NCBI GenBank assembly: GCA_014728215.1
Contig: WJLZ01000158.1
Location: 1-39,798, forward strand
From: Chitinivibrionales bacterium
GTDB lineage: Bacteria; Fibrobacterota; Chitinivibrionia; Chitinivibrionales; WJKA01
Direction: 5' to 3'
DNA: 39,798 nt
The position numbers and the translations under genes were made by a program. Position 1 is the stretch's first letter. Every line of letters starts with the position of its first letter. Shown piece after piece: positions 7,518-34,141 of the stretch. The notes beneath the pieces were generated by a model that was not told where the DNA came from, made no database searches, and saw only the letters and a program-made list of their open reading frames with translations.

Positions 7518-8609
7518 ATGAGTACGAAACATGATATTGGACACAGCATCCCTCCTGAAATCAAGATCGCATCGATCGGTGCAGCGAATCCACCGGTAAA
7601 AATAGAACAGCCGCTTGCAGACCGTCTCTACACGCGATACTATAAAGACGAATTAACCCGGCGAAGTATGGATGTTCTTCACAAGGTACTCTTACACCCC
7701 AGCATTAAAACCAGATATGTTTCGGCAAAAAATCATACCGAGCTTCTTAAGTTCAAGAATGAAGACCCTGATAAGCGCATGGACCGTTTCGCCTACTGGG
7801 CGGTTGAACTAGGTAAAAATGCTGTGACCAGAGCGATAACAAAATGCGGCGCTGAAATCTCGGATATCGACGCGCTTATAACAAATACCTGTACCGGGTA
7901 TCTCTGTCCGGGTATCGGCACCTATCTTATCGACGCGCTTGGCTTGTCACCCGATACCTTTGTGTATGATCTTGCGGGTGCCGGATGTGGTGGAGCGATC
8001 CCGAATATCCAGCTGGCTCATAACTTTGTTAAAGGTTCTCCCGGAAGTATCGCGGTCAGTGTGGCGATCGAGATATGCAGTGCAACGTTCCAGATGGATA
8101 ATGATATCGCCTTAATCATATCCAACGCGATTTTCGGTGACGGTGCTGCCGCCGCAGTACTCTGGGACCGTCCGCAGGGATTTACACTGGTTGACACCAT
8201 GAGCAGATTCGATCCGAAGTACAGGGAAGATGTTCGTTATGTCTATAAAAAAGGACAGCTCCATAATCGTATCAGCTCCCGGCTGCCTAAAGTGCTCGGA
8301 GAAATAGTTCCTGCCTTAATTAACGAGTTGATCGAAAGAAATAACCTGAAAATATCCGACATTTCCCATTGGGCTATTCACCCCGGAGGGGATAAAATTA
8401 TCGAAATTCTTAAAGATGAGATGAATCTCTCAGAGGAACAGCTCGACCCGACCCGTTCGGTACTGTCGGAATATGGAAACATGTCCTCACCTACCGTGCT
8501 CTTCGAGATTGACAGGATCATGAACAATGGAACCAAATCGGGTGATTGGGGTGTTGTGGTCGGCTTTGGGGCGGGACTTTCGGTTTATGCATACCTTTTA
8601 AAAACCTGA
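7518..8609 (+). CDS. Type III polyketide synthase (chalcone/stilbene synthase family)
   Basis: A 363-residue homodimer-type ketosynthase that extends acyl-CoA (or ACP) starters with malonyl-CoA without a carrier domain. The Cys-His-Asn triad is visible: C157 in LAGAGCGGAIPN, H288 in WAIHPGGDKI and N321 in EYGNMSSPTVLF. The closing GFGAGLSVY loop is also typical. Bacterial relatives make alkylresorcinols, alkylpyrones or small phenolics; the product cannot be read from sequence. The start has a good AAAGGAAAAA site and an extended -10 promoter. It is followed after 17 bases by a YceI-like gene in the same operon, and a methyltransferase of the type III PKS-associated type lies at 19474. Confidence 0.93.
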   Translation: MSTKHDIGHSIPPEIKIASIGAANPPVKIEQPLADRLYTRYYKDELTRRSMDVLHKVLLHPSIKTRYVSAKNHTELLKFKNEDPDKRMDRFAYWAVELGKNAVTRAITKCGAEISDIDALITNTCTGYLCPGIGTYLIDALGLSPDTFVYDLAGAGCGGAIPNIQLAHNFVKGSPGSIAVSVAIEICSATFQMDNDIALIISNAIFGDGAAAAVLWDRPQGFTLVDTMSRFDPKYREDVRYVYKKGQLHNRISSRLPKVLGEIVPALINELIERNNLKISDISHWAIHPGGDKIIEILKDEMNLSEEQLDPTRSVLSEYGNMSSPTVLFEIDRIMNNGTKSGDWGVVVGFGAGLSVYAYLLKT

Positions 8610-11621: not shown

Positions 11622-13007
11622 CTACATAATAAATTTTTGAATCTTTTGTACAAAACCGAGCGGTAGAGAATAAGGAGGATAAACTACGGGGACGCCCAGC
11701 CGGTGATGCTTATCCATGACACTCCGAATGTAGCTGAATGTATCGAAACCGGACTTGCCGTGATATCGGCCCATTCCGCTGTTACCTACACCCCCGAAGG
11801 GAAGTTCCTTAGACATAAGGGCATGGATCGTCCCGTTGAAACAGATCGTGCCCGACCGGGTACGCTGCCTGATTTTATCTTTAATTTTACTATCTGCCGT
11901 AAAGCAATACAAAGCAAGCGGCTCCGGTAGAGAATGCAGATGCTTTAAAAGGATGTCTACATCTTGATATGCGGTAACGGGAAGGATCGGTCCGAATATC
12001 TCTTCCTCCATAAGCGGGGTATCCCAGGTGTCAAATTTTACCACCGTAGGCTCGATATATCGTTCGGCATCTTTGACCGTACCGCCATACAAGGGAGTGC
12101 AGCTTTGAAGAAGCTTTGTGAGCCTTTGCACATGATGATCATTAACGATACGTCCGTAATTAGAGCTTTCGAAAGGGTTCTTGCCGAAAAAACGCCTGAT
12201 CGCATCGATGAGCGCCTGGTTTAAATCGTCAAGTATGCTTTCGTGGACACACACAAAGTCGGGCGCTATACAGGTTTGGCCTGCATTGAAAAACTTGCCC
12301 CAGACAATCCGCCGAGCAGATTCTTTGACCGATGCCGAGGAATCGACAATGCAGGGGTTTTTGCCTCCCAGTTCAAGCGCAACCGGTGTCAGATGTCTTG
12401 CCGCCGATTCCATGACCGCTTTGCCGATACTGCTGCTGCCCGTAAAGAAAATGAAATCGACATTCTGAGCGACAAGCGCCTTTGTTTCCGACGCCCCACC
12501 CGTGCAGACGGTCAAAATCGATGGATCAAATGCATCGGCTATCATTTTTTTAATACACGACGCCGTGGCCGGGGTATATTCCGACGGTTTTAAAACAGCA
12601 CAATTGCCTGCGGCAAGTGCCGCTGCAAGGGGGGCAAAAATCAGCCCGAAAGGATAATTCCAGGGAGCAATAATAAGCGCACACCCATAGGGGCGAGGAT
12701 AATAATAGCTGTGACCGGGCATGTTTATAAGCAACATCTTTGCCCGCTTTTTTTTCGACCATTTGGCTACGTTGCGAATTGCATAGTCGATCTGCGAAAG
12801 GGAATAGGCGATTTCACTTGTATACGATTCAAAGGCCGGTTTACCAAGGTCCTCTTTCAAAGCCCGAATGATCTCGTCTTCATACGACTCGATAGTTGCC
12901 TTTAGCCGACGCAAATAGCATTTTCGTTCTCTAATTTCTAATGTGGCGCCGGAGGCAAAGAATATTTTTTGCCTGTCAATTATATTTTGAGGATCGAATG
13001 AACTCAT
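11622..13007 (-). CDS. aldH: Aldehyde dehydrogenase, AldH-like (carotenoid aldehyde oxidation)
   Basis: A 461-residue class 3-type NAD(P)-dependent aldehyde dehydrogenase. General base E212 is in ALELGGKNP and catalytic C246 in NAGQTCIAPD; PWNYPF and EEIFGPILP are conserved family elements. The C-terminal region (LPFGGVGNSGMGRYHGKSG then a hydrophobic tail) resembles the staphylococcal 4,4'-diaponeurosporenal dehydrogenase AldH, which turns the terminal aldehyde into the acid before glycosylation. Location next to crtP, crtQ and crtO homologues supports that role. A general fatty-aldehyde dehydrogenase remains possible. The start has an AGGA site and faces the TPR gene across about 76 bases. 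Confidence 0.88.
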   Translation of the reverse strand: MSSFDPQNIIDRQKIFFASGATLEIRERKCYLRRLKATIESYEDEIIRALKEDLGKPAFESYTSEIAYSLSQIDYAIRNVAKWSKKKRAKMLLINMPGHSYYYPRPYGCALIIAPWNYPFGLIFAPLAAALAAGNCAVLKPSEYTPATASCIKKMIADAFDPSILTVCTGGASETKALVAQNVDFIFFTGSSSIGKAVMESAARHLTPVALELGGKNPCIVDSSASVKESARRIVWGKFFNAGQTCIAPDFVCVHESILDDLNQALIDAIRRFFGKNPFESSNYGRIVNDHHVQRLTKLLQSCTPLYGGTVKDAERYIEPTVVKFDTWDTPLMEEEIFGPILPVTAYQDVDILLKHLHSLPEPLALYCFTADSKIKDKIRQRTRSGTICFNGTIHALMSKELPFGGVGNSGMGRYHGKSGFDTFSYIRSVMDKHHRLGVPVVYPPYSLPLGFVQKIQKFIM

Positions 13008-13083
13008 GAATCCTACTCACAATTTCTGGCTGATAACGGGTAAATGTATTCTAAATATACTTAACCGCGACCGGGAAAATATC

Positions 13084-13890
13084 ATGAAACAAACCTCCAG
13101 GACCACTCGAGTGACAATCGGTCTGCTGCTCTGTTGCATGGCAATAATAAATGCGGAAAATGTTGAAAGAGAATTTGGTCCCCGGCTGAAAAAGGGGATA
13201 GCACTATTTGATTCGGCATATAATGCATGGAATGATAGCCTGTTTCTCGAGGCATATGCCCATTTTTCCAAAATGCAGCGTTCCTTTCCCGCACAATATT
13301 TTCCTCGGTACTGGCAGGGGGTAGTGAGTTTTTATCTGGTATCCTATACCTTATTCGGTCTGCCTGAAGACCGGGATCAAAAGGCCGCTGCCCTGTATGT
13401 CGCTCAGGCCCTGGATGCGCTGAATGAAGCATTGGAGTTGAAACCCGGTGATGCCGAAGCTTTAGCGCTGCTGGGAACACTCAAAGGAATAAAAATATAT
13501 CTCAATCCTCTGCTGGCACCGGTGCTGGGACCGCAGGTAATGAATGCAATAGAGCGTGCTCTGGAAGCTGGCCCTGATAACCCGCGAGTGTATTATCTTG
13601 TCGGAGTCAGCTATTATAACACACCGTCCTTTCTTGGCGGGGGAGCGGCTAAAGGGTTGGATTATCTGCTCAAGGCACATGAGCTTTTTGCTGGAGAGGC
13701 GAAGAGACCGGACAATCCGCTTTCGCCCGATTGGGGGTATAGTACCTGCCTGGCCTTTATCGGCAAAGTATATATGTCTGAAAAAGAGTATGAAAAAGCA
13801 CGTATCTGGTTTAATAACGCTCTGGTTGTAAATCCGCAGGATAAACTGGCAAAGCGGGGGATTCGTGAACTCGCTCGGATAGCACCTTAA
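13084..13890 (+). CDS. Secreted TPR-repeat protein of unknown role
   Basis: About 268 residues. It begins with a signal-like stretch (basic start, then VTIGLLLCCMAIINA) and continues with helical repeats of TPR character: YAHFSKMQRSFPAQYFP, ALDALNEALELKPGDAEAL, AIERALEAGPDNPRVYYLVG and ARIWFNNALVVNPQDKLAK. The ATG at 13084 is preferred to the one at 13006 because it exposes the signal peptide and avoids overlap with the divergent dehydrogenase. It is the first gene of the TPR-crtP-crtQ-crtO-crtN operon, 19 bases ahead of crtP. No known carotenoid cluster component matches it; it may be a periplasmic scaffold or adaptor for the pathway or exporter. Confidence 0.8.
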   Translation: MKQTSRTTRVTIGLLLCCMAIINAENVEREFGPRLKKGIALFDSAYNAWNDSLFLEAYAHFSKMQRSFPAQYFPRYWQGVVSFYLVSYTLFGLPEDRDQKAAALYVAQALDALNEALELKPGDAEALALLGTLKGIKIYLNPLLAPVLGPQVMNAIERALEAGPDNPRVYYLVGVSYYNTPSFLGGGAAKGLDYLLKAHELFAGEAKRPDNPLSPDWGYSTCLAFIGKVYMSEKEYEKARIWFNNALVVNPQDKLAKRGIRELARIAP

Positions 13891-13909
13891 CAGCAAAGGA
13901 AAAATACCA

Positions 13910-15397
13910 ATGCAAAATAGGAAAAAGGTTATTGTTATCGGCGCCGGGCTTGGTGGCATGTCCGCAGCAATCAGCTGTGCAATCCGTGGATATGATGTTA
14001 CCGTTTATGAAAAAAACGACAAAGTCGGCGGAAAACTCAATGTGATGAGCAAAGACGGATTCACCTTCGATCTGGGGCCATCGATTTTGACTCTGCCCCA
14101 TATTTTCGAACAGCTTTTTGCCATGTCCAACAAAAAAATGTCCGATTATGTCGATATCGAGACGCTCGATACGCACTGGCGGAATTTTTTTGAGGATGGT
14201 ACGGTTCTCAACCTGTATGCTGATAACAAAGCTACCGCCGAAGAACTCGAAAAGCATATTCCCGGAAGCGGTATTCAGTATAGAACATTTGTAAAATATT
14301 CGAAAAAGCAGTATGAAATTGTTGAAAAGAAATATTTCAAAAAAGGCCTGGATACATCCTGGGGTATTTTTACCAGCTACAACTGGTTTGAATTGTTCTT
14401 CAATCTCGACATATATCACACGATGAATTATTCGGTGGAGCGCTATTTCAGCGATCGACACTTGCGTGATATTTTCAATTATTTCATTAAATATGTGGGA
14501 TCATCCTCCTATAATGCTCCCGGTTTTATGAACCTCCTTCCCTGGGTGCAAATCGGCTACGGGCTCTGGTATGTCAAGGGTGGGATGTACAATCTGGCAA
14601 AGGGACTGGAAAGGTTAATGAAAGATCTCGGGATTACTATTCATATCGGCACCGAAGTTACGCAGATCATGCACGAGCGAAGCCGGGTAAAGGGTATTAT
14701 ACTGAAAAATGGAGAAGAACAATGTGCCGATGCGGTGATTTCCAACATGGAAGTGATTCCTGCTTACAAAAAGCTTTTAGGCGAACCGGACTCATTTATG
14801 CACAAACTTGACAAGTTTGAGCCGGCATGTTCAGGGCTCGTGCTTCACCTGGGCCTCGATACTATTTACCCACAGCTGGCGCACCATAATTTTGTTTACT
14901 CAAACAATCAGAAGGAGCATTTCGATCTGGTTTTCAACAAGAACGTTATTCCAAACGACCCGAGTATCTATCTTGTTGCACCCACCCGTACCGATCCATC
15001 TCAGGCTCCCAAGGGGTGCGACAATCTGAAAATATTACCCCATATTCCCTATATAAACGATGACCATCCTGTAACCGGAACCGATTATGAGGCGCTGGCC
15101 GAGCGGTGCATCGACAAACTCGAGGCGGTGGGGCTGAAAGATATCCGCAGACATATTATCGTAAGGGACATGTGGACGCCGGTAGATATCGAGGCACGGT
15201 ACTATTCCAATAAGGGGGCAATTTACGGTGTCGTATCGGATAAAAAGAAAAATTTTGCTCTCAAGGCGCCCAAGAAAAGTTCCCGGTATTCAAATCTTTA
15301 TTTTGCCGGCGGAAGTGTCAATCCTGGAGGAGGCATACCGATGGTGTGTCTGAGTGGACAGAATACAGCACAATTAGTGGCCCGGGATCTGGGGTAG
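13910..15397 (+). CDS. crtP: CrtP-like carotenoid terminal oxidase
   Basis: A 495-residue FAD-dependent member of the CrtI/CrtN superfamily. The N-terminal dinucleotide site is VIGAGLGGMSAA. Several stretches match what I recall of staphylococcal CrtP (4,4'-diaponeurosporene oxygenase) rather than CrtN: FIKYVGSSSYNAP, VISNMEVIPAYKKLL, YPQLAHHNF, SNKGAIYGVVSDKKKN and GGSVNPGGGIPMV. CrtP oxidises the terminal methyl of a C30 carotene toward the aldehyde. An AAAGGAAAAAT site precedes the ATG. It heads the crtP-crtQ-crtO-crtN gene run. In the staphylococcal enzyme the reaction uses O2. Confidence 0.9.
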   Translation: MQNRKKVIVIGAGLGGMSAAISCAIRGYDVTVYEKNDKVGGKLNVMSKDGFTFDLGPSILTLPHIFEQLFAMSNKKMSDYVDIETLDTHWRNFFEDGTVLNLYADNKATAEELEKHIPGSGIQYRTFVKYSKKQYEIVEKKYFKKGLDTSWGIFTSYNWFELFFNLDIYHTMNYSVERYFSDRHLRDIFNYFIKYVGSSSYNAPGFMNLLPWVQIGYGLWYVKGGMYNLAKGLERLMKDLGITIHIGTEVTQIMHERSRVKGIILKNGEEQCADAVISNMEVIPAYKKLLGEPDSFMHKLDKFEPACSGLVLHLGLDTIYPQLAHHNFVYSNNQKEHFDLVFNKNVIPNDPSIYLVAPTRTDPSQAPKGCDNLKILPHIPYINDDHPVTGTDYEALAERCIDKLEAVGLKDIRRHIIVRDMWTPVDIEARYYSNKGAIYGVVSDKKKNFALKAPKKSSRYSNLYFAGGSVNPGGGIPMVCLSGQNTAQLVARDLG

Positions 15398-15406
15398 CAG
15401 GAACCG

Positions 15407-16519
15407 ATGATTATATTTTCCCTTATCGCAGCATCCCTGGCGGCAGTTCTTTTCTGGATTCCCGGCCTGTATCTTTTGTGGCGGATCCCTTTTTGCAGCG
15501 GAGAACGAAATGGTCATGAAGGGTGTACAATTATTATTCCTGCGCGTGATGAAGCCGGCAATCTGCCGCCCCTTTTGGAATCTTTGCGCTCTCAGCTTCT
15601 GCCCCGTGATGAAATTCTGGTTGTCAATGATCATTCCCGGGATAATACCCCCGAAATTGCCCTGAACCATGGCGCCCGGGTGATGGGAAGCGGTAAACGG
15701 CCCGATGGTTGGACCGGAAAAACATGGGCATGCTGGCAGGGGGCTCAGGCCGCGAATAATGAGATGATGCTGTTTGTCGATGCCGATACCTGGTTTGCCC
15801 AGGGAGCGCTCACGAGAATGGTCGCAACCCTGCAACGTAAAAATGGACTGGTGTCGGTTCAACCCTTTCACTGCATGAAAAAGGCATACGAACGTCTCTC
15901 CGCCCTCTTTAACCTCATGGTTATGATCGGTGTGGATGCCTTTACGTTTGGGAAAACCAACAAGGGGCCGTCTGGAAGCTTCGGGCCATGCATACTCTGC
16001 AGCAAAAAAGACTACTTTACTGTTGGAGGACACAAAAGCGTCCGCAATCTGGTACTGGAAAACCTTGCGTTAGGGCCACTATTTAAAAAATCCGGATTTC
16101 AAATCAGTTGTTTCGGTGGTGCACATACAATCTTTTTCCGCATGTATTCCGATGGCCTGAAAGATTTGGTTGAAGGATGGACCAAAGGGTTTGCCACAGG
16201 GGCCGCTCGAACACCACCGCGTATTATGGCCCTCACTATTGCATGGATCAGCGGGGCTTTCATCGCCGCAATTGTTGTCGCTGTGGCAATTTTGGTACAT
16301 ACTCTCTCTGCCATGGCGGTTGCCGCCTTTATTTACCTGCTGTATGCAGGGCAATTCTACTGGATGCTTCGTCGAATCGGCAATTTTGGAATTCTCACCT
16401 GTCTGTTCTTTCCGCTCCACCTGCTTTTCTTTGTTTTAATTTATATTAGGTCCTTTATAGCAATTTTCATACGCAAAAGCGTCCGGTGGAAAGGGCGGAA
16501 CCTTTCGATGGGGAAATGA
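15407..16519 (+). CDS. crtQ: CrtQ-like carotenoid glycosyltransferase (GT2)
   Basis: A 370-residue membrane-anchored family 2 glycosyltransferase. It has one N-terminal helix, then a GT-A domain with TIIIPARDEAGNL and the metal-binding LFVDADTWF. The later elements SVQPFHCMKKAYERLSALFN, GGHKSV and FRMYSDGLKDLVEGWTKG are close to staphylococcal CrtQ, which glucosylates diaponeurosporenoate. About three C-terminal membrane helices end in VRWKGRNLS, as in CrtQ. AGGAACC lies just upstream of the start, 9 bases after crtP. The downstream crtO start overlaps or abuts its stop, so coupling is likely. Confidence 0.9.
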   Translation: MIIFSLIAASLAAVLFWIPGLYLLWRIPFCSGERNGHEGCTIIIPARDEAGNLPPLLESLRSQLLPRDEILVVNDHSRDNTPEIALNHGARVMGSGKRPDGWTGKTWACWQGAQAANNEMMLFVDADTWFAQGALTRMVATLQRKNGLVSVQPFHCMKKAYERLSALFNLMVMIGVDAFTFGKTNKGPSGSFGPCILCSKKDYFTVGGHKSVRNLVLENLALGPLFKKSGFQISCFGGAHTIFFRMYSDGLKDLVEGWTKGFATGAARTPPRIMALTIAWISGAFIAAIVVAVAILVHTLSAMAVAAFIYLLYAGQFYWMLRRIGNFGILTCLFFPLHLLFFVLIYIRSFIAIFIRKSVRWKGRNLSMGK

Positions 16520-16521
16520 TT

Positions 16522-17052
16522 ATGAGACTTTGGCATTTTAGTAATTTACTGACAGTAATAATCGATTTTGCAGCCTGGTTTGTACTGCATATGCTCATTG
16601 CGCTCGGTGGCACATTACTTCCACGGCGCCTTTTTCATGAAAAACAGTGGCTGTTTCGGAGTCGCGGATGGGAGAAAAAGGGAGATTTTTATCAACAGTT
16701 ATTCGGTGTGATTGGCTGGAAAGATAAATTGCCCGATGGTGCGAGCTGGTTTCGCGGCGGGTTTGCCAAAAAGCGGGTTGCGAGTACCAATGTTGAATAC
16801 CTTGATAATTTTGTTAAAGAGACCTGTCGGGGTGAGCTGGTCCATTGGATTGTGGTTGCTGTCTCTCCGGTCTTTTTTCTCTGGAATCCATGGTATGCGG
16901 GAATTATCATGATTGTCTATGCCCTGGCCTCTAATATTCCCTGCATTATTGTCCAGCGCTATAACCGGCCCCAGCTGATGCGCATTGTTAAGCGGCGGCG
17001 GGAATATATTCGAAAACAGCACCAGCCGGTCGAAACCGGGGAAAAGATATGA
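16522..17052 (+). CDS. crtO: CrtO-like glycosyl-carotenoid acyltransferase
   Basis: A roughly 176-residue membrane protein with two to four hydrophobic segments. It resembles staphylococcal CrtO (glycosyl-4,4'-diaponeurosporenoate acyltransferase). The shared elements are CRGELVHWIVV, followed by NIPCIIVQRYNRPQLMRIV and a basic tail. CrtO adds a fatty acyl chain to the sugar of the carotenoid glycosyl ester. The ATG at 16522 is favoured because GGGGA lies 7 bases upstream; an ATG at 16516 overlapping the crtQ stop is the alternative. Its stop overlaps the next crtN start by 4 bases. The nearby KAS II/ACP pair could supply its acyl donor, though this is inference. Confidence 0.88.
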   Translation: MRLWHFSNLLTVIIDFAAWFVLHMLIALGGTLLPRRLFHEKQWLFRSRGWEKKGDFYQQLFGVIGWKDKLPDGASWFRGGFAKKRVASTNVEYLDNFVKETCRGELVHWIVVAVSPVFFLWNPWYAGIIMIVYALASNIPCIIVQRYNRPQLMRIVKRRREYIRKQHQPVETGEKI

Positions 17053-18530
17053 AATCAAAGCATATTGCAGTAATCGGTGCCGGAGTAGGAGGACTTACCT
17101 GTGCACTGCTGCTTGCCTCCCGGGGCTATTCGGTTACCGTTTATGAGAAAAGGGACCGTGTAGGCGGACGCAATTCGCAGTTTACGCTGGGCTCCTATAC
17201 TTTTGACACAGGACCGACCTTCCTGACAATGAATACCATCCTGCGGGAGATATTTTCTGCTGCAGGAAAAAATCTGGAAGACTTTTGTGAGATTGTTCCA
17301 CTCGATCCGCTCTATCGGCTCTCATTTCCCGACTGCGCCCTCCGGGTACCAGCAGACAATACCGCTCTCCGGAGCGAAATAGGACGGCTTTACCCGGGAA
17401 ATGAAAAAGGATTCGATCGCTATCTTTCGTACGAGAAAAAACGTTTCGAGCGATTGTATTCCACCGTGCAGCGCGATTTTTCCAGTTTATGGGCATATAT
17501 TTCTCCGGATATGATAACCGGGATTCGGTATCTATCACCGGGAAAAAGCCTCTATGATGTCCTGAAAAGGTATTTCACTTCCGAGCAACTCCGCATCGCT
17601 TTTACTTTTCAGGCAAAGTACCTGGGAATGTCGGCCCGTGAAGCTCCTGCTTTATTTACCATGCTTTCCTATATGGAACATGCATTCGGTGTCGATCATG
17701 TCCGGGGCGGGCTTAGTATGCTGAGTGAAGGCATCGCTGAAGCTGCCGGTCGGGAAGGAGCCAAGATTTACTGTTCGACACCGGTAAAACGTATTATTAC
17801 TCAGCGAAAGCGAGCCATTGGTATCGAACTGGCTGATGGACAAAAGGTTCATTGTGACGCCGTAGTGGTTAATGCCGACTTCGGCCATGCCGCCACGACA
17901 CTTTTTGAACCCGGTCTGCTCCGGAAATATGCACCCCGGCGGATCGCCGGTAAAAAATTCTCCTGTTCTACTTTCATGCTCTATCTCGGCTTGGATAAAC
18001 AATACAACGAGCCGCACCATAATCTTATTTTTCCCGGCGATTACTGGAAGCATGTCGATGAAGTAATGCACCAGGGGGTGGCTTCCGATGACATGTCCAT
18101 TTACATCCGCAATGCATCGGCAATAGATACAAGCATGGCGCCTCCGGGACATTCATCTCTGTACATTTTGGTGCCTGTTCCCAACCTGCTCAAAGAGCCT
18201 TCCTGGGATAAGGAAAAAACCGGCTTCTATCGTCGCACCGTGCTCAATAAAATAAAAGAACGAACGTCAATGCAAGACCTGGAAAACCATATTGTTAATG
18301 AGCGGATTATCACCCCTGCAGATTGGGAGCGTGACTATTCAATTTACGGTGGGGCGACATTTAACCTTGCCCATACTTTCGACCAGTTACTTTATTTCAG
18401 GCCCCATAACCGTTTTGATGAAATTTCGGGTTGTTATCTTGTCGGTGGGGGCACTCATCCCGGGTCGGGACTTCCCACCATCTTCGAATCCTCACGAATT
18501 AGTGCGGGTTTGATTTGCAGAGATATTTAA
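17049..18530 (+). CDS. crtN: CrtN-like C30 carotenoid desaturase, copy A
   Basis: A 493-residue FAD-dependent desaturase. The nucleotide-binding start is VIGAGVGGLTCAL. Stretches such as FTFQAKYLGMS, FGVDHVRGGLSML, KKFSCSTFMLYLGLDK and GGGTHPGSGLPTIFESS follow the order seen in dehydrosqualene desaturase CrtN rather than CrtP. It would introduce conjugated double bonds into dehydrosqualene (C30) or possibly phytoene (C40). It is the last gene of the rightward operon, overlapping crtO by ATGA. A paralogue of identical length lies inverted at 20268. No phytoene or dehydrosqualene synthase is in the window, so the chain length is not settled. Confidence 0.88.
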   Translation: MKSKHIAVIGAGVGGLTCALLLASRGYSVTVYEKRDRVGGRNSQFTLGSYTFDTGPTFLTMNTILREIFSAAGKNLEDFCEIVPLDPLYRLSFPDCALRVPADNTALRSEIGRLYPGNEKGFDRYLSYEKKRFERLYSTVQRDFSSLWAYISPDMITGIRYLSPGKSLYDVLKRYFTSEQLRIAFTFQAKYLGMSAREAPALFTMLSYMEHAFGVDHVRGGLSMLSEGIAEAAGREGAKIYCSTPVKRIITQRKRAIGIELADGQKVHCDAVVVNADFGHAATTLFEPGLLRKYAPRRIAGKKFSCSTFMLYLGLDKQYNEPHHNLIFPGDYWKHVDEVMHQGVASDDMSIYIRNASAIDTSMAPPGHSSLYILVPVPNLLKEPSWDKEKTGFYRRTVLNKIKERTSMQDLENHIVNERIITPADWERDYSIYGGATFNLAHTFDQLLYFRPHNRFDEISGCYLVGGGTHPGSGLPTIFESSRISAGLICRDI

Positions 18531-20267: not shown

Positions 20268-21749
20268 TTAGTAAACACCCGATATCATATTTGCCGAAAT
20301 GCGTCCTGATTCATAGATTGTTGGAAGGCCCGAGCCGGGGTGGGTACCTCCGCCTACAAGATAACAATTGTCGACTTCTTCGAATTTGTTATGAGGACGG
20401 AAATAGAGCATCTGGGTGAGATTATGACCTAAATTAAAGGTCGCTCCGAGAAAAAGATTGTAGTCGTTTTCCCAGTCGGAAGGTGTTATGATTTTTTCTT
20501 CGATAATATGTTCCCGCAAATCATGCATGGAGGTTCTTTTGCAGATGCGGTCGAGTACCTTTTCCCGCTCCATTTGTATGGTTTCATCGTTCCACTGGAT
20601 TGAGCTTTTATTGTTGGGTACGGGGACCAGAACATAAACAGCCGAATGGCCGTCGGGAGCAATTGTCGTATCGACAGCGCCCGCGTTGCGCACATAAATC
20701 GACATGTCGTCGGACAATACTTTCCGTTGGGCAATATCGGTAATATTATTTTTGTAGTTTTCTGCAAAAATAATCTGATGATGGGGTTCATCATAGCGCT
20801 TATCGATACCCAGGTAAAGCATAAAGGTGGAGCAGGAAAATTTCTTTTTTCTCAATCGATGGGGTGCATATTTGCGGATGATTCCCGGTTCGAACAGGTG
20901 GGTCATTGCGTAGCCGAAATCGGCATTGATTATCACCTGGTCGGCTTCGATTTTCTCTCCATTTTCAAGTTCGACTCCTCGTGCCTTTCTGTTGGCGACA
21001 ATGATTTTTTTAACCGGCGCATTGAGTCGAATCTGGGCACCGTGATCCATGGCAACGGCAGCCATGGCATCGGAAATTCTACTGAGTCCCCCGATAATAT
21101 GATCGATGCCGAATGCGTGTTCGATATAGGGGATTATGGTAAATGCCGCAGGGCATTCCCAGGGCGACATGCCGAGATATTTTGCCTGAAAAGTAAAGGC
21201 AACTTTCAGTTCTTCATCGGTAAAATAGTCGCTGAGGTTCTGATAGAGCGTTTTATTGAGTGAAAGAAAGGGTATCGCTTTTAACAGGGCGGGAGAGAAA
21301 TTCGAGCGGAAATTGGAATAGGGCTTCTGCAGACAGGGATACATCATCTTATATCTGAATCCCTCTTTTTTCAAAAAAGCATCGTATCCATACTGATCGC
21401 CCGGAAATTGTTCGGCAATACGGTTTCGCATTTCCTCATGGTTTGAGGTGGGATATATTCCTCTGTCTGCAAAAGCAAGTTTATACATGGGGTCCAATGG
21501 AACGACTTCGCAATAGTCTTCCAGCTTTTTGCCCGCAAGCTCAAATACTTCTCTGAGAATAAAGGTCATCATAAGGAATGTCGGGCCGGTATCGAATGTG
21601 TAGGAACCGAGTTGAATAGCGGTATTCCGTCCACCCACGGTGTTTTCTTTTTCACAAAAGGTTACTTTATACCCTCGCTTCGCGAGAATCATTCCCGCAG
21701 TCAATCCGCCGGGACCTGCTCCGATAATCAGAATGTGTTGTGATGACAC
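20268..21749 (-). CDS. crtN: CrtN-like C30 carotenoid desaturase, copy B
   Basis: A 493-residue FAD-dependent desaturase, paralogous to copy A along its whole length: IIGAGPGGLTAGM, FTFQAKYLGMSPWECP, FGIDHIIGGLSRI, KKFSCSTFMLYLGID and GGGTHPGSGLPTIYESG. It starts with GTG at 21747-21749, supported by an AAGGAG site 6 bases upstream. Two CrtN-like enzymes may split the desaturation steps, act on the two halves of the carotene, or serve different substrates. It stands alone on the left-going strand, so it may have separate control from copy A. Confidence 0.88.
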   Translation of the reverse strand: MSSQHILIIGAGPGGLTAGMILAKRGYKVTFCEKENTVGGRNTAIQLGSYTFDTGPTFLMMTFILREVFELAGKKLEDYCEVVPLDPMYKLAFADRGIYPTSNHEEMRNRIAEQFPGDQYGYDAFLKKEGFRYKMMYPCLQKPYSNFRSNFSPALLKAIPFLSLNKTLYQNLSDYFTDEELKVAFTFQAKYLGMSPWECPAAFTIIPYIEHAFGIDHIIGGLSRISDAMAAVAMDHGAQIRLNAPVKKIIVANRKARGVELENGEKIEADQVIINADFGYAMTHLFEPGIIRKYAPHRLRKKKFSCSTFMLYLGIDKRYDEPHHQIIFAENYKNNITDIAQRKVLSDDMSIYVRNAGAVDTTIAPDGHSAVYVLVPVPNNKSSIQWNDETIQMEREKVLDRICKRTSMHDLREHIIEEKIITPSDWENDYNLFLGATFNLGHNLTQMLYFRPHNKFEEVDNCYLVGGGTHPGSGLPTIYESGRISANMISGVY

Positions 21750-24270: not shown

Positions 24271-24338
24271 ACGAGAGTCGAGAATCGAAGAAAAATCGTC
24301 GTTATCTTTTTCCTCTTCCTCCAGCCTCAACCTCAAAC
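24271..24338. repeat. Low-complexity intergenic sequence, candidate dispersed repeat
   Basis: Between uvsE and the DUF523-DUF1722 gene lies a strand-biased stretch containing ACGAGAGTCGAGAATCGAAG, then a pyrimidine run with CCTCTTCCTCC, then CCTCAACCTCAAAC. The internal periodicity (GAGTCGAGAATCGA; CCTCAACCTCAA) looks like dispersed intergenic repeats seen in some environmental genomes. Only one copy is visible here, so this is tentative. Confidence 0.3.
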
Positions 24339-25271
24339 ATGATTCCTCAATTTCAATTCGGCCGGATGCGGGTTAAGATAGTATTGTCGTTTCAGATATG
24401 ACTCATTGTATTTCCGGGCATAGTGTTTAATAAGGGTAACCGGAACAATAAGGGGTATGAGATTTGAATGATACTGTTCGATTACCTCGGCAAGTTCCTT
24501 TTTTTCATCAGGAGTGAGCTGTTTTTTGAAATAACCCATACAATGCATGAGCACATTAACATTTTTTTTGACTGTTGCAATGAGTTTCAGTGCCTCCATC
24601 ATGGTATGAAAATATTTGTCGGTTGATTTTTCCAGATGCTGCTTTGTTGCCTCAACAACAATTCTTCCCAGACTTCGAAGATGCCGGGGACTGTGTGCCA
24701 TAAAAAGCAGCTTATGATTGGTATGGAATGCGATTAACCCGCCCACCGTATGGTTGGTATACAGGAAATCTTTCCACCGTGAGAATACGAATATCCGTTC
24801 GATAAAATTTTCTCTGATATTATCATCATGCAACCGCCCTTCGTCTTCAACAGGGATTTCGAGAAACCTCTCCATGAAAAGCCGGGCGAAGATGCCTGAT
24901 CCCCGGTAGCTGGGCATGCCTTTCTCGGTATATACCTTGACTCCCCGCATCCCGCAGCTGGGCGATTTTGTTTTAAAAATGTAGCCGCACAAATCTTCCC
25001 GGGCAAGCTGTTCGAGTCGAATCGCAGCCCACTCGGTCATCTGAACCGTAATATCTTTTTGGGTTTTGAGGGTCACAAGCCGGTAGTGTTCCGGCGTCCC
25101 TACAAGCCGTATCGCTTCCCGGGGGATACTGAGGCCGCATTCCACCTCTGGACATACCGGCACCCATTCCACAAATTTTCCCAGTATATCCCGGAGATAA
25201 CGGTCGAGTTTATGGGCGCCGTCGTAGCGAACATTATCTCCCAAAAGACATCGGCTGATTCCTATTTTCAT
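24333..25271 (-). CDS. DUF523-DUF1722 protein (YbgA-like fusion)
   Basis: About 312 residues. The N-terminal DUF523 domain runs to ~residue 150: IGISRCLLGDNVRYDG, VPVCPEVECGLSIPRE and FKTKSPSCGMRGV, with conserved Cys. The C-terminal DUF1722 domain covers ~residues 180-300: FHTNHKLLFMAHSP and HCMGYFKKQLTPDEKKEL. DUF1722 is the YbgA family, encoded beside phr in Escherichia coli and often near photolyases. The biochemical role is unknown to me. The ATG at 25271 is chosen because GGTGAGG lies upstream and a longer frame would overlap the neighbouring hydrolase. Confidence 0.9.
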   Translation of the reverse strand: MKIGISRCLLGDNVRYDGAHKLDRYLRDILGKFVEWVPVCPEVECGLSIPREAIRLVGTPEHYRLVTLKTQKDITVQMTEWAAIRLEQLAREDLCGYIFKTKSPSCGMRGVKVYTEKGMPSYRGSGIFARLFMERFLEIPVEDEGRLHDDNIRENFIERIFVFSRWKDFLYTNHTVGGLIAFHTNHKLLFMAHSPRHLRSLGRIVVEATKQHLEKSTDKYFHTMMEALKLIATVKKNVNVLMHCMGYFKKQLTPDEKKELAEVIEQYHSNLIPLIVPVTLIKHYARKYNESYLKRQYYLNPHPAELKLRNHV

Positions 25272-25317
25272 AAGAAAAACCTCACCCGGTTGATAGGTAC
25301 AGGACCGATCAGTACTG

Positions 25318-26256
25318 CTATTTTGGGGAAGCCGTGGAACCATGGGAACTGCAGAATTCCCTGATTTCTCCGGCAACATTGTCACCCTGCCGAAAAACCA
25401 TCGCGTGCGTACCTCCCTCGATTATTTCAGATTGAGCCTGAGGAATGTACTTCTTTATCCGCTTTACCTGTTTATCCGAAAAGACATCTTCCTCACTGCC
25501 CGAAAGAAGAAGCACGGGGCAGGAAACTTTTTTTGCATACGCACCGGCATCATAGCCGTCCATTGCCTGCACTACCTGGCGGAAAAAGTCAACATCCTTT
25601 ACACGGAAGAGCTGTTTAATTCCGGTTGTATCATCCTCATATTCCTTTGCGGTTCTTTTATATACCTTTTCCATAAACCAATAGAGTTTATAATCGGGAA
25701 TGTCTTTTACCCATTCGGCCATGATATGTTGCCGTCGTTGCTCCCGTCGGGTGTTTCCCACGATACCGGTCGAGATAAGAACAAGATTTTTCACATCCAC
25801 TATTTTATCGGCGGCCAGACGAAGGGCAATGCCGCCTCCGAAGGAAACTCCACAGACGTTACACGATGTGAAATGCATTAATTCGACAAATTCGGAGGTG
25901 ATCTCTACAAAATCTTTCATGGAGCCCATGTACCGGGAGGTCGATTCGGGGATATCATAAGCGATGAGTCTCCAGGAGTCGGCCAGTGATGTCATATTGG
26001 TGAACGTTCTCCCGTCAAGAATAAGCCCATGAAAAAAGAGAAACACCGGCGCCGAATCATTCGGTGAGGGATATTCATAATAACGGTGAATAAAGTCACT
26101 GCCGGGCTTTGAAACAGATTTGTATTCCCATCCCTGAAAATTCCACCCGGCATGTTTTTGATCCATGTCTACAATCTGCGCGACCTTGCGCTCGTATTTT
26201 TCTCTGGGTACGAAAAGTGTAATGAATGACAATAATATTACAAGAAATCGAGACAT
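25318..26256 (-). CDS. Alpha/beta-fold hydrolase
   Basis: A 312-residue alpha/beta hydrolase with an N-terminal hydrophobic anchor or signal (FLVILLSFITLFV). The oxyanion region is FLFFHGLILDG, the nucleophile elbow is CGVSFGGGIAL with the Ser in GxSxG, an acid lies in LLLSGSEEDVF, and the catalytic His is in EGGTHAMV. The triad order is complete. Substrate unknown; it could be an esterase or lipase. It lies 46 bases upstream of the DUF523-DUF1722 gene on the same strand. Confidence 0.85.
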   Translation of the reverse strand: MSRFLVILLSFITLFVPREKYERKVAQIVDMDQKHAGWNFQGWEYKSVSKPGSDFIHRYYEYPSPNDSAPVFLFFHGLILDGRTFTNMTSLADSWRLIAYDIPESTSRYMGSMKDFVEITSEFVELMHFTSCNVCGVSFGGGIALRLAADKIVDVKNLVLISTGIVGNTRREQRRQHIMAEWVKDIPDYKLYWFMEKVYKRTAKEYEDDTTGIKQLFRVKDVDFFRQVVQAMDGYDAGAYAKKVSCPVLLLSGSEEDVFSDKQVKRIKKYIPQAQSEIIEGGTHAMVFRQGDNVAGEIREFCSSHGSTASPK

Positions 26257-29555: not shown

Positions 29556-30746
29556 TTACTGTTCCAGCCGATTCGCCATCTTGATAACCGGAACCAGCAT
29601 TGCACTGGCGATCAGGATCATACAAAAAGACGCAATACCGATTATTCTGAATGGAAAGTAGTCGGTTAAAAAAAAGCCGATGCGGGGGGCGATAATCCCC
29701 CGTACTCCCATAAGGAACACATGGATTGACATGTAAATATGAGCCTGACCCGCCGGGGCGAATTTTGTTATCCATAAATTCCATGCCAGAACACCCCCCG
29801 AGAGACAAATGCCGAAAAGAAAACTTCCCGCGCCGATAATTACCGGATTTTCGCTGATAAAGTAAATCAGCAGGCCAAAACCCAAAAAGAGATTGAGTGT
29901 GATACGAAGAACGATAAAGTTAATACGATCGAACAGGTGAGCCCAGAAACGGATGAAAATAAGTCGCGCCGCTTCGGGAATAACACCGGCGATTACCATG
30001 ACCATTAAGGGCGACAAATCGAGGCCCCCCTTTGATTCGGCCAAATACTCGATCCGCAGGGCACGGGTCCACAGGTTGGCAAAACCGGTAATAAACCAGG
30101 AAAAAAGAATATAGCCAAAGAGTTTGTTCTTCCATATCAGTGATAAGTTTTTAAGAGGATTACTCGCCGATTGCATATCAGGGGTTGACGACGGGATCAG
30201 GAAAACCGCAACCGTACTGACAGCACTTGCCACCGCAGCAATTCCGATAATTAGTCGATACAACGCAAGGTTAATATCCAATAACCGGCCAAAGGCATAG
30301 CTGCATGTTATGGTCACCGAAATCGTCGCAATCAGGCTCCAGGAGTAGAGAGTCCCCCGTTCCCGTGCACTGTAATTCTCTTGGTAAATGGCCGATAAAA
30401 AAGGAATCCTCATCCAGGCAAAGGACATGGCAATGGTGGCGATAATCGAAAAGATTATTCCATCACTGGTAAAAAGAAGCATGGTGGTAAACACACAGCA
30501 AAGTCCCATGGGCGCAGATGCCAGCAGGGATTTTCTCAAACTCGTATCTGCAAATCTGGCGCTGTAAACAAGAGAAAAGATGCACCCGATAAAAGGGGCG
30601 GAAGCAATCAATGCTTTCCACGAATCGGAAAGATTGAAAACTTCAATGGCAACCAGGAGAAGAATAGTATTGACAATCGCAGCCAGAACGCCGTCGGCTC
30701 CACCACGGATCGTATCGAGAATAAAAGTCTTTTTTCTTTTGTCCAT
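29556..30746 (-). CDS. MFS transporter
   Basis: A 396-residue protein with about 12 membrane helices arranged as two sixes, of the major facilitator type; for example IVNTILLLVAIEVF, LVYSARFADTSLRKSLL between helices 2 and 3, and FGICLSGGVLAWNLWI in the second half. No substrate can be named. It converges with the GH20 gene 64 bases away, and follows the TssBC gene on the same strand after 118 bases. It may import a sugar for the GH20 enzyme. Confidence 0.8.
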   Translation of the reverse strand: MDKRKKTFILDTIRGGADGVLAAIVNTILLLVAIEVFNLSDSWKALIASAPFIGCIFSLVYSARFADTSLRKSLLASAPMGLCCVFTTMLLFTSDGIIFSIIATIAMSFAWMRIPFLSAIYQENYSARERGTLYSWSLIATISVTITCSYAFGRLLDINLALYRLIIGIAAVASAVSTVAVFLIPSSTPDMQSASNPLKNLSLIWKNKLFGYILFSWFITGFANLWTRALRIEYLAESKGGLDLSPLMVMVIAGVIPEAARLIFIRFWAHLFDRINFIVLRITLNLFLGFGLLIYFISENPVIIGAGSFLFGICLSGGVLAWNLWITKFAPAGQAHIYMSIHVFLMGVRGIIAPRIGFFLTDYFPFRIIGIASFCMILIASAMLVPVIKMANRLEQ

Positions 30747-30864: not shown

Positions 30865-32616
30865 TTACAAAGTAAAGGAAATGTCGAGTGTTATTTCTTC
30901 ACCAAAAACCGGATAGGGGAGCCGGACCGATAATGCAAAATCATGGGCATTGGTCTTTTCCCTGCTTACTTCGAATCCGACCCGTACTCCATTATCAGAT
31001 GGCCGAAGTGATTTGGGAATAAGAAGTGCTTTGATTCCTGCTTTAAGAATTTCTGCCAGCGTCTCAGGTGATTTATCACCGAATTTTTCCGCCAAGTGGA
31101 GCACGATATGAGAGATCCGCGCGCTCAGAAGCGCTTTGGTTATCGAAACACCGTCTTTTCGTATCGTTGTTATCGAACCGAATCTCAGTTCTGTTGTGTC
31201 CGGCGCACTGGAGAGGGGAATAAGGCCATTGGCTCCCATATCCCATTGCATATCCCCTGTCCAGACTTCAGGAGTACTTTGCATCGCACATTTTCCATGC
31301 CGGTCCTTAACCGGCACCGCCTCCATATTGTGCAGACGGGGATTCACTCGAATTTCATCCAGTTCCTCCGTACCCAGCATGGTCATGGTTTGCGACAGGA
31401 GCGCACCTAATGCAATAGAGCCGCTTCCCCAGGGAAGGTAATGGTGATTTTCGGCCTCTTTATAAGGAATTGCTTTAGTCGGCACTTCGGATTGGGAATA
31501 ATAGGTTCGAAGAGCGAATTCGCCTGCGGTAAAGGCAACCCAGTCCGATTCCGGACGATCCCTGAATGCCCGCCAGTTTTCATATCCCGCAGAATCAATA
31601 AGCGATGCAACGCTGGGGACTTCCGACGACAGCTGATCGTAATTCGATATACCGAAGAATTGCGGTCCTGCAGGTGCGCAAATCAGTGTTTGCGTACTCT
31701 GGGCCAACTCAGCCAGCTGCTCAACCATTTCCTGGTGTGGAGGAATCCTGCTGAATTCATGGGCAATGATTATCAGATCATAGGGAGGATGACCTTCTTT
31801 CCATACCGGATGGAACACTTTGTCATGCAGGGTTTTTTGAATGTCATCCCTGGAACAGGCAATGACATCGAGTTGAACACCTTTACGGAAATCGGTACAA
31901 TCAACCAGAAATTTTAGCTCTCTCCATGAAGATTCCAGATCGATAAATGCAGGGGCATGGAGTATCTCGTCAAGCTGAGCTGCAAGAAGAGCATTTGCAT
32001 CACGCAGTATGGAATCGATATCTTCCCCGGCAACAGCAGACTGTTCTCCGGCTGTAACCGCCTCCATGAATTTATTCAAAGCATCCGGTGATCCTTCTCC
32101 CGGATTATCGGTTTGAGACGAGCGGTCATCAATATCAAGCATGTTCAGAATATTATCTATTTTGCCTTCCTTTTTTTTCTGCCCGGCCTGTGACGGAGTC
32201 GATGAACTACTTGTGCGGGTTGCTTTTTCGATTGCAGTAACAAGCTCTGGCGGCAGGGATAAATTTTTCAGCGATGAGTTCAATTCGGTACCCGAAATTC
32301 GACCACTGCGGCAATCGTCAATCAATTTTTTGAATATAAGAATATTTGCACATGAATGCACCTGATAGATAACCGAATCGGGAGTGAAATCCTTGAGCGA
32401 TTCAAACGATAGATTGATATCTCTATGATCGAGTGGACCACCGAGCTTGTCGGGAACCGTCAGAAAGAGTGTGGGGAATAGTTTTTGTGCGAGTTCACTG
32501 AAAGTACTTCTATCTATGGAGTATGGTCCTGACGGTCCTTTGCCGGGGGTCAGGTTGGAAAGGACAAGAATCTTCCATGGTGGAAGCTTTGGAATGGGTA
32601 TGTTCTCTTTGGCCAT
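30865..32616 (-). CDS. Fused TssB-TssC type VI secretion sheath protein
   Basis: About 583 residues combining both contractile sheath subunits. Residues ~10-130 resemble TssB/VipA: PPWKILVLSNLTPGKG, IDRSTFSELAQKLFPTLFL and INLSFESLKDFTPDSV. A polar linker follows (~residues 140-200, rich in Ser, Lys and acidic residues). Residues ~210-583 resemble TssC/VipB: HAPAFIDLESSWRELKFLVD, PPYDLIIIAHEFSR, SLIDSAGYENWRAFRD, DWVAFTAGEFALRTYYS and YLPWGSGSIALG. The ATG at 32616 is preferred over GTG at 32619, with AAAGGAT upstream. No other T6SS gene (tssE, tssK, hcp, vgrG, clpV) is in the window. Confidence 0.82.
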   Translation of the reverse strand: MAKENIPIPKLPPWKILVLSNLTPGKGPSGPYSIDRSTFSELAQKLFPTLFLTVPDKLGGPLDHRDINLSFESLKDFTPDSVIYQVHSCANILIFKKLIDDCRSGRISGTELNSSLKNLSLPPELVTAIEKATRTSSSSTPSQAGQKKKEGKIDNILNMLDIDDRSSQTDNPGEGSPDALNKFMEAVTAGEQSAVAGEDIDSILRDANALLAAQLDEILHAPAFIDLESSWRELKFLVDCTDFRKGVQLDVIACSRDDIQKTLHDKVFHPVWKEGHPPYDLIIIAHEFSRIPPHQEMVEQLAELAQSTQTLICAPAGPQFFGISNYDQLSSEVPSVASLIDSAGYENWRAFRDRPESDWVAFTAGEFALRTYYSQSEVPTKAIPYKEAENHHYLPWGSGSIALGALLSQTMTMLGTEELDEIRVNPRLHNMEAVPVKDRHGKCAMQSTPEVWTGDMQWDMGANGLIPLSSAPDTTELRFGSITTIRKDGVSITKALLSARISHIVLHLAEKFGDKSPETLAEILKAGIKALLIPKSLRPSDNGVRVGFEVSREKTNAHDFALSVRLPYPVFGEEITLDISFTL

Positions 32617-32730: not shown

Positions 32731-32788
32731 TCATTTCTCATTAATGGTACAAAATAATCATTTCTTACTCGACGGCGACACATTTATC

Positions 32789-34141
32789 ATGATTTATAGA
32801 GCATCCATCCTCACTGCATTCTTTTTTTGCTGCATATTTTTAGCGGTTCCGGGAACTGCATCAGGAGAGTGGTATCCCCAAAGCCTTTCATCTTCGGACA
32901 GCACCCAATTCAAAAACCTGCATACTGTTTTTTTTGTTGATACGCTTCGGGGATGGGTCGGTGGTGATTCCGGTATGTTGTATATGACTACCGACGGCGG
33001 TGCATCATGGCAAAAAAATGAACGTGACTCCACATGGAATTTCCGGAAAATACAATTCATTAATCATACCACCGGTTGGATTGCCGGACTCCAGGATACA
33101 ATACTCTATACCTCAAAGAGCGGTGAGGACTGGGAAATTCTGACAAGCGGCAATCACGGCGGGCATCGCGGCTTTGATGATATCTTTTTCCTTAATGAAC
33201 GCCAGGGATGGGCTGTTGGAGGTGCCCCCGGATATTATCGAAAAATAATGTATTCTTCCGATGCGGGAGTGAAGTGGGAATTTCAGGAAAGCTACGTGGT
33301 TTACCGGGTTAATGCGGTCTTTTTCATCGACAGCACTACAGGATGGATTGCGGGAGGAAATAAAAACACATCGGGTTTCCCCATCAATTCACCCCTGATC
33401 AAAAATACCACCGATGGTGGAATCGTATGGGACACCAGAATGCCGCTTCATTCATTGAGCGGTAAAGGACATCTCTATGATATCTTTTTTACGGATTCGT
33501 TACATGGGTGGGCGGTCGGCGACAGCGGCATGATTCTTTATTCCTCAAACGGCGGCATGTCTTGGGAACAACAGAATTCCTCGCTTGATAACACCTTGTT
33601 CAGCATCTTTTGTCCCGACACTGCCGTTGTGTACATTGTCGGTGAAGAGGGTGCGATACTTTATTCTACCGATGGTGGCGAGCTGTGGAGTGTAGATTCC
33701 AATACAACCGGTCATACGCTCCGTGATGTCTTTTTTGTCGATGAGGTTCATGGCTATGGCTGGATTGTCGGTGACAGCGGAACACTCCTGAGCAACTACA
33801 AGACCGGAGATTCTCCTATTTCCGGCAGAAAACCCTCTCGATTTGCTCCCGGAAATGACTTCACTTTAAAAGCAGAGGCAAATCCCCGATTTATCGTTTT
33901 GTATGGTGAAGCTCCTTCCGCGGGTTCGGTAACTGTACGGGTGGTAAATGCCGCAGGTCGTGAACTGTTACACAAAGAATTCTTGATCGAATCACCGGGA
34001 AGATTTACCAGAATGGTTGAGGGTTTCCGAAGCGTTCAATGGCCCTCCGGGATCTATTTTTGCTGCAGCCATTTCTGTAATGCCGGCGGCTCTACCCGAA
34101 AAATATCGCCCATTTTTCTTGGCGCTGCCAGTTCGGAATAA
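32789..34141 (+). CDS. Secreted YCF48-like beta-propeller protein
   Basis: About 450 residues. Starting at the ATG at 32789 gives a clear signal peptide (ASILTAFFFCCIFLAVPGTASG); an ATG 15 codons earlier would bury it. Seven repeats of the form GWxxGDSGxxxxxxDGGxxW follow, such as GWVGGDSGMLYMTTDGG, GWAVGDSGMILYSSNGG and GWIVGDSGTLLSNY. These are typical of YCF48/BNR-type propellers. The last ~90 residues form a small beta-sandwich-like module (VTVRVVNAAGRELLHKEF ... WPSGIYF) resembling C-terminal sorting or cell-surface domains in FCB-group bacteria. Function unknown; probably extracellular or surface-bound. Confidence 0.85.
   Translation: MIYRASILTAFFFCCIFLAVPGTASGEWYPQSLSSSDSTQFKNLHTVFFVDTLRGWVGGDSGMLYMTTDGGASWQKNERDSTWNFRKIQFINHTTGWIAGLQDTILYTSKSGEDWEILTSGNHGGHRGFDDIFFLNERQGWAVGGAPGYYRKIMYSSDAGVKWEFQESYVVYRVNAVFFIDSTTGWIAGGNKNTSGFPINSPLIKNTTDGGIVWDTRMPLHSLSGKGHLYDIFFTDSLHGWAVGDSGMILYSSNGGMSWEQQNSSLDNTLFSIFCPDTAVVYIVGEEGAILYSTDGGELWSVDSNTTGHTLRDVFFVDEVHGYGWIVGDSGTLLSNYKTGDSPISGRKPSRFAPGNDFTLKAEANPRFIVLYGEAPSAGSVTVRVVNAAGRELLHKEFLIESPGRFTRMVEGFRSVQWPSGIYFCCSHFCNAGGSTRKISPIFLGAASSE

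What the first reader, a model, noticed from the sequence alone, without database searches (positions are those of the whole stretch)
30865..32616. Orphan TssB-TssC fusion sheath protein
Both contractile sheath subunits appear in one 583-residue chain with a disordered linker, and no other T6SS gene is nearby. In standard systems TssB and TssC are separate, co-operonic proteins. This could be the sheath of a divergent contractile machine encoded in pieces, or a repurposed cytoplasmic filament.
Basis: partly seen in the sequence, partly recalled or inferred. Interest (0 to 1): 0.65.

Follow-up and report, generated by a model that had tools for sequence, protein, structure and literature searches.

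The report
Single-chain TssB-TssC sheath paralogue
One bacterial gene really does join both halves of a type VI secretion sheath subunit in a single protein; related bacteria share it, always beside a normal version of the machine, so it is probably a modified extra sheath part rather than a machine of its own.

Summary
The fusion is real. It is on the MINUS strand (ATG 32616, stop 30865, 583 aa). Residues 12-127 are TssB-like and residues 164-579 TssC-like (profile-profile E 6e-19 and 5e-43). The linker holds a D-x-I-[LM]-x-M motif that is invariant in all 15 relatives found.

It is alone in the window but not in the genome. The same genome has separate tssB and tssC, plus hcp, vgrG, tssA, E, F, G, K, L, M and clpV, dispersed over several contigs. 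Fifteen of 168 Fibrobacterota genomes carry the fusion, in two clades. All 15 also carry separate tssB/tssC. None of the genomes without TssB/TssC has it. In clade II it heads an operon of LysM-FecR, CHASE2-Ser/Thr-kinase and FHA-transglycosylase genes; elsewhere that trio sits beside canonical tssABC-hcp.

The fusion keeps the TssB-TssC core, but its tube-facing, protomer-lacing inner domain is degenerate: no PF18945 match, the RxAHY[LI]K helix lost, and the TssB N-terminal strand missing in clade I. It is under purifying selection but evolves much faster than TssC.

Best reading: an accessory sheath-like protomer of the resident T6SS (end-cap, nucleator or recycling regulator), not an independent machine. 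The role is inferred. No natural TssB-TssC fusion turned up in the open literature searched.

The parts
30865..32616 (-). TssB-TssC fusion gene, 583 aa, ATG at 32616, stop 30865-30867
32236..32583 (-). TssB-like domain (residues 12-127); lacks the N-terminal ~33 residues of TssB, including the beta1 'handshake' strand
   Evidence: hhalign to TssB columns 34-156, 99.1%, E 6e-19; Pfam VipA residues 31-119; best fold match TssB of 5urw, E 1.4e-3
32131..32163 (-). conserved linker motif KIDNILNMLDI (residues 152-162)
   Evidence: D, I and M invariant in 15 of 15 fusions; aligns with the TssC N-terminal helix region
31162..32001 (-). TssC (VipB) N-terminal/middle domain (residues 206-485)
   Evidence: Pfam PF05943 E 3.4e-38
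30868..31161 (-). degenerate TssC inner domain (gpW/gp25-like region, residues 486-583): helices plus three predicted terminal strands
   Evidence: PF18945 not matched in the fusion but 1.7e-40 in canonical TssC; weak colinear profile match, P 3e-4; strands in a low-confidence model
29556..30746 (-). MFS transporter downstream on the same strand (118-bp gap); same neighbour in G036 and G037; functional link unproven

Best explanation
The gene encodes a fast-evolving but functional paralogue of the T6SS sheath protomer in which TssB and TssC are one chain. Shown: the TssB/TssC homology, conservation across an order of Fibrobacterota, strict co-occurrence with a canonical T6SS, operon linkage of one clade to T6SS-associated kinase/FHA genes, retention of the TssB-TssC core, and degeneration of the inner domain that laces protomers and faces the Hcp tube. 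Inferred: because the core and outer docking surfaces are kept while the lacing parts are weakened or lost, it does not build a long contractile sheath alone. It acts as an accessory protomer of the resident T6SS, docking on the canonical TssBC sheath or its end as a cap, nucleator or regulator, and is probably bound through the linker motif by ClpV or an analogous partner, under Ser/Thr-kinase/FHA control at least in clade II.
For: Own genome has a full canonical T6SS. All 15 fusion genomes carry separate tssB/tssC; 0 of 117 phylum genomes without detectable TssB/TssC carry the fusion; within the order 15/30 vs 0/10, Fisher p 0.004, not phylogeny-corrected. Clade II fusions head an operon with LysM-FecR, CHASE2-kinase and FHA-SLT; the same trio, or its FHA-SLT member, sits beside canonical tssABC-hcp in G037, G004 and G019. 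Core retained: 40/42 cells of the canonical TssC invariants up to residue 120 conserved in clade I, against 11/84 for 381-445 and 7/49 for 446-506. Purifying selection: dN/dS 0.22 in a clade II pair. Precedent: Agrobacterium ImpD/TssC40, a second TssC homologue, is scored as required for Hcp secretion and is not redundant with TssC41 (PMC3702570).
Against: No physical evidence of contact with the sheath. Clade I, including the window copy, is not linked to T6SS genes. The identity of the linker motif with the ClpV-binding helix is only suggestive: a motif scan put the best hit in the N-terminus of only 6 of 25 canonical TssC, all from one family. Co-occurrence is confounded by shared ancestry. 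The structure model is poor (pLDDT 37.6). The kinase/FHA-SLT pair also occurs in G033, where no T6SS was detected.
Confidence: 0.5

Rival explanations
1. It is an alternative full sheath: under some conditions the fusion replaces TssB/TssC on the same Hcp tube and baseplate, giving a second flavour of T6SS, as the single-chain sheaths of phages and pyocins do.
For: All protomer modules are present in one chain in operon order; a low-confidence model predicts three C-terminal strands where acceptor and donor strands lie; only one Hcp exists to be shared.
Against: The inner domain is not recognised by PF18945. The RxAHY[LI]K helix, kept in canonical TssC and even in the divergent TssC40 proteins tested, is lost. 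The TssB beta1 strand that laces neighbouring protomers is missing in clade I (strand role from PMC5807055).
Confidence: 0.2
2. It has left secretion altogether and is a cytoplasmic scaffold or filament used for another purpose, for example envelope or cell-wall signalling.
For: Scattered neighbours in clade I: MFS, hisD, an LpoB/CsgG-like lipoprotein; 57% identity between two same-genus genomes whose TssC is 97% identical; linkage to CHASE2 kinase, LysM-FecR and transglycosylase in clade II.
Against: Never found without a canonical T6SS; the linked trio itself sits next to canonical T6SS genes in other genomes.
Confidence: 0.17
3. It is a relic of a second, lost T6SS, drifting towards loss.
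For: Fast evolution and loss of many canonical invariant residues.
Against: An intact ORF in all 15 genomes found (the two-piece hit in G015 lies in one 544-codon open frame), dN/dS about 0.22 in a close pair, an invariant linker motif, and a conserved clade II operon.
Confidence: 0.06

Closest known systems
Canonical T6SS sheath proteins TssB/VipA (PF05591) and TssC/VipB (PF05943)
   Same: Homologous over nearly the whole length, same order as the tssB-tssC operon, TssB-TssC core retained.
   Different: One chain; below both NCBIfam equivalog cut-offs; inner domain degenerate; TssB beta1 absent in clade I; not in a T6SS cluster in the window; outside all canonical TssC sampled in a tree, on long branches.
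Agrobacterium ImpD/TssC40 and its tandem-TssC relatives
   Same: A divergent, non-redundant second sheath homologue inside one T6SS (PMC3702570).
   Different: The TssC40-type proteins tested (Phyllobacterium, Pseudoalteromonas) are TssC only, lie in the T6SS cluster, and keep the RFAHY[LI]K helix; the fusion profiles score them lower than canonical TssC.
Single-chain contractile sheaths (phage gp18, R-type pyocin; PF04984)
   Same: Whole sheath protomer in one polypeptide (established knowledge; gp18/TssBC overlay discussed in PMC5807055).
   Different: The fusion matches no PHROG family and Pfam finds only the VipA/VipB models in it, not Phage_sheath_1; no Phage_sheath_1 protein occurs in the genome; it derives from the T6SS branch.

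Membership tests
TssB (T6SS sheath small subunit) | Pfam T6SS_VipA above gathering score | tested here: met
   39.5 bits vs 24; profile-profile E 6e-19
TssB (T6SS sheath small subunit) | NCBIfam TIGR03358 equivalog cut-off | tested here: not met
   35.8 bits vs 97.25
TssB (T6SS sheath small subunit) | N-terminal beta1 strand donated to a neighbouring protomer | tested here: not met
   Alignment to TssB starts at TssB column 34; clade I has 11-14 residues before the core. Clade II has an extension of similar length, but homology to beta1 is not shown
TssC (T6SS sheath large subunit) | Pfam VipB N-terminal domain above gathering score | tested here: met
   131.8 bits vs 27
TssC (T6SS sheath large subunit) | NCBIfam TIGR03355 equivalog cut-off | tested here: not met
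   127.2 bits vs 271.5
TssC (T6SS sheath large subunit) | gpW/gp25-like inner domain (PF18945) and RxAHY[LI]K helix | tested here: not met
   No PF18945 match vs 1.7e-40 for the genome's own TssC; helix motif absent. A weak colinear profile match remains (P 3e-4)
TssC (T6SS sheath large subunit) | N-terminal ClpV-binding helix | tested here: inconclusive
   Invariant linker motif aligns with this helix and resembles LVNEILEFMDI of some canonical TssC, but the motif scan is not conclusive
Core T6SS gene cluster member | encoded with other tss genes | tested here: not met
   No tss gene in the window; clade II linked only to T6SS-associated regulators
Functional contractile sheath | self-assembly around Hcp, contraction, ClpV recycling | not testable with these tools
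   needs biochemistry or cryo-ET

The most novel reading that the evidence does not exclude
A new accessory component of the T6SS: a single-chain sheath-like protomer lacking full lacing capacity that sits at a sheath end or among sheath protomers and sets nucleation, length or recycling, coupled in one clade to a CHASE2 kinase/FHA-transglycosylase pathway.
Probability: 0.35. Interest if true: 0.75.

Novelty: new variant of a known kind. Interest (0 to 1): 0.52.

Why it matters
In canonical T6SSs the sheath protomer is always described as two proteins; a conserved one-chain form kept alongside the normal pair would be a new accessory part. The composition of the sheath's distal end was reported as unclear (PMC5813253), so a protein that looks like a protomer with weakened lacing is a concrete candidate for capping, nucleating or length control. 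The fusion also shows which parts of TssBC can be lost while the core is kept.

Tried and rejected
(1) Assembly or frameshift artefact joining neighbouring tssB and tssC: rejected, because separate tssB/tssC exist elsewhere and 14 other genomes have intact single-ORF relatives. (2) Phage or eCIS sheath: rejected (viral contig scans found nothing). (3) Defence system: no PADLOC match. (4) Orthology to TssC40/ImpD: not supported. (5) Structure: only the window protein and its L004 relative fit the tool's stated input rule; the two-row models were poor (37.6 full length; 55.6 TssB part). The fold search on the latter still ranked TssB chains first (5urw E 1.4e-3, 4ps2 E 0.14). (6) ClpV-helix motif test: inconclusive. 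(7) Homology of the clade II N-terminal extension to TssB beta1: not demonstrated. (8) Literature search for natural TssB-TssC fusions: two hits on the search phrases, neither title concerning a natural fusion (titles and abstracts only); open-access library only. (9) Tree: fusions fall outside all canonical TssC sampled, but long branches make the exact position unsafe. (10) Plasmid search: P0001 matched separate tssB/tssC pairs in the listed rows and a clade II fusion matched nothing.

Full report
WHAT IS THERE. The gene runs on the minus strand from ATG 32616 to the stop at 30865. It encodes 583 residues. Pfam recognises T6SS_VipA (TssB) at 31-119 and VipB (TssC) at 206-485, both above the curated cut-offs. 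NCBIfam's TssB and TssC equivalog models hit the same regions but fall well below their cut-offs, so this is a divergent relative and not an ordinary TssB or TssC. Solved relatives are T6SS sheath proteins. With an alignment of seven clade I proteins, profile-profile comparison matches TssB at 12-127 (99.1%, E 6e-19) and TssC at 164-579 (100%, E 5e-43). A low-confidence model of residues 1-138 (pLDDT 55.6) still picks TssB chains as its best PDB fold matches (5urw E 1.4e-3, 4ps2 E 0.14). The full-length model from a two-row alignment is too poor to use beyond secondary structure (pLDDT 37.6).

IT IS NOT ALONE IN THE GENOME. The genome has a separate, canonical TssC (434 bits, against 133 for the fusion) next to TssB, TssA and Hcp. 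It also has TssE, TssF, TssG and ClpV on a second contig, TssK, TssL, TssM and a Ser/Thr kinase on a third, and VgrG on a fourth. There is one Hcp and no phage-type sheath. The canonical T6SS loci are flanked by unrelated genes, so it is the normal machine that is encoded in pieces here.

DISTRIBUTION. Searches of 168 Fibrobacterota genomes with the protein and with a family alignment give 15 genomes with a single-ORF fusion, all in the window's order of 40 genomes. There are two clades. Clade I has 7 members including the window (G000, G036, G035, G034, G005, G037, G004). Clade II has 8 (G015, G019, G020, G021, G022, G023, G031, G032). The two match each other over nearly their whole length by profile (99.8%). 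Every one of the 15 genomes also carries separate tssB/tssC, and none of the 117 genomes without detectable TssB/TssC carries the fusion. Within the order this is 15/30 against 0/10 (Fisher p 0.004; the phylum-wide figure is far smaller but more confounded by ancestry). Occurrence outside the phylum was not tested systematically: the single genome-collection scan only reaches close relatives and found the G036 orthologue. In plasmids the fusion protein hit T6SS tssB/tssC genes in the listed rows, and a clade II fusion hit nothing.

NEIGHBOURS. In clade II the fusion is followed by a LysM-like/FecR protein, a CHASE2-domain Ser/Thr kinase and an FHA-domain lytic transglycosylase, with simpler versions in G015 (fusion then FHA-SLT) and G019 (fusion then a 451-aa kinase). 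Full-length FHA-transglycosylase orthologues occur widely in the order. In G037 the whole FecR-kinase-FHA/SLT trio lies divergently next to canonical tssA-tssB-tssC-hcp. In G004 and G019 the FHA-SLT gene lies in the canonical T6SS region. The trio is therefore T6SS-associated, and clade II fusions are tied to the T6SS through it. Kinase/FHA control of T6SS is established in other bacteria (PpkA/Fha; PMC3953482, in the list). In clade I the neighbours vary: MFS and GH20 in the window's genus, MFS in G037, and hisD upstream plus an LpoB/CsgG-like lipoprotein downstream in G034 and G035, with overlapping or abutting genes.

WHAT IS KEPT AND WHAT IS LOST. A joint alignment with canonical TssB+TssC pairs shows a graded pattern. 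In clade I, canonical TssC invariants are kept in 40 of 42 cells up to TssC residue 120, but in only 11 of 84 cells for residues 381-445 and 7 of 49 for 446-506. The TssB helix that binds TssC (PMC3840085) is present. Lost or altered are the R-x-A-H-Y-[LI]-K helix, kept in canonical TssC and in the TssC40-type proteins tested, and a recognisable PF18945 inner domain (absent at E<=1; 1.7e-40 in canonical TssC; a weak colinear profile match remains, P 3e-4). In clade I the N-terminal TssB beta1 strand is also missing. In the Pseudomonas sheath that strand is donated to a neighbouring protomer and, with the TssC C-terminal strand, forms the 'handshake' of the inner layer (PMC5807055); the length of the adjoining linker controls contraction in Vibrio (PMC5797969). 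Clade II has an N-terminal extension of similar length with a conserved V-x-L-G, but its homology to beta1 could not be shown.

THE LINKER MOTIF. The otherwise variable linker contains D-x-I-[LM]-x-M, with D, I and M invariant in all 15 proteins. In the joint alignment it falls on the TssC N-terminal helix, which in other systems binds the ClpV N-domain (PMC5048182). Some canonical Fibrobacterota TssC have LVNEILEFMDI there. A motif scan, however, put the best hit in that helix for only 6 of 25 canonical TssC, all from one family. ClpV recognition is therefore a reasonable guess and not a result.

SELECTION AND ORIGIN. Between the window genome and G036, TssC is 96.9% and Hcp 95.7% identical, but the fusion only 56.7% (flanking MFS 72.7%, GH20 69.8%). 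In the closer clade II pair G021/G022, dN/dS is about 0.22. The protein is constrained but evolves fast. In a tree of TssC regions the fusions fall outside all canonical TssC sampled, on long branches: clade II is one group with full support, clade I with modest support. Whether the fusion arose from an old tssBC duplication in this phylum cannot be settled.

HOW IT MOST LIKELY WORKS. Shown: homology, core retention, inner-domain decay, co-occurrence with a T6SS, and clade II operon linkage. Inferred: a protomer that keeps its core and outer faces but has weakened lacing and tube contacts is poorly suited to build a long contractile sheath alone and well suited to dock on one. I favour an accessory role in the resident T6SS (cap, nucleator, or assembly/recycling regulator; about 0.5). 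Below it I rank an alternative full sheath (0.2), a repurposed scaffold (0.17) and a relic (0.06). Agrobacterium TssC40/ImpD is a precedent for a divergent, non-redundant second sheath homologue that is scored as required for Hcp secretion (PMC3702570). No natural TssB-TssC fusion was found in the open literature searched.

Noticed in passing
11622-18530 and 20268-21749: Cluster resembling a staphyloxanthin-type (4,4'-diaponeurosporenoate) carotenoid ester pathway: three amine-oxidase/desaturase-like FAD proteins, family 2 glycosyltransferase, CrtO acyltransferase and aldehyde dehydrogenase; a type III polyketide-synthase-like gene (7518-8609), a ketosynthase (5702-7084) and an MMPL transporter (9247-11577) lie next to it.
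   Followed up: partly
32744-34141: Divergently transcribed Ycf48/BNR-repeat protein beside the fusion evolves even faster than it (46% identity between the window genome and G036).
   Followed up: partly
L042:3639-8662 and L088:3014-8281: Conserved trio LysM-FecR / CHASE2-Ser/Thr kinase / FHA-domain lytic transglycosylase, sometimes beside canonical tssABC-hcp and sometimes beside the TssBC fusion; looks like a T6SS regulatory and peptidoglycan-opening module of this order. The joining of FHA and SLT domains in one protein is itself unusual.
   Followed up: partly
L046, L047, L087 (own genome): The canonical T6SS of this genome is split into at least three loci with unrelated genes between (tssA-B-C-hcp; tssE-F-G-clpV; tssK-L-M plus a PEGA-like protein and a kinase), whereas in G004 much of it is contiguous.
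   Followed up: partly
L036:2-4187 and L037:8014-12265: In G035 and G034 the fusion gene overlaps hisD at its start and is followed closely by an LpoB/CsgG-like lipoprotein gene, suggesting translational coupling of unrelated-looking genes.
   Followed up: no
24333-25385: Protein joining a 2-thiouracil desulfurase domain and DUF1722; not studied.
   Followed up: no
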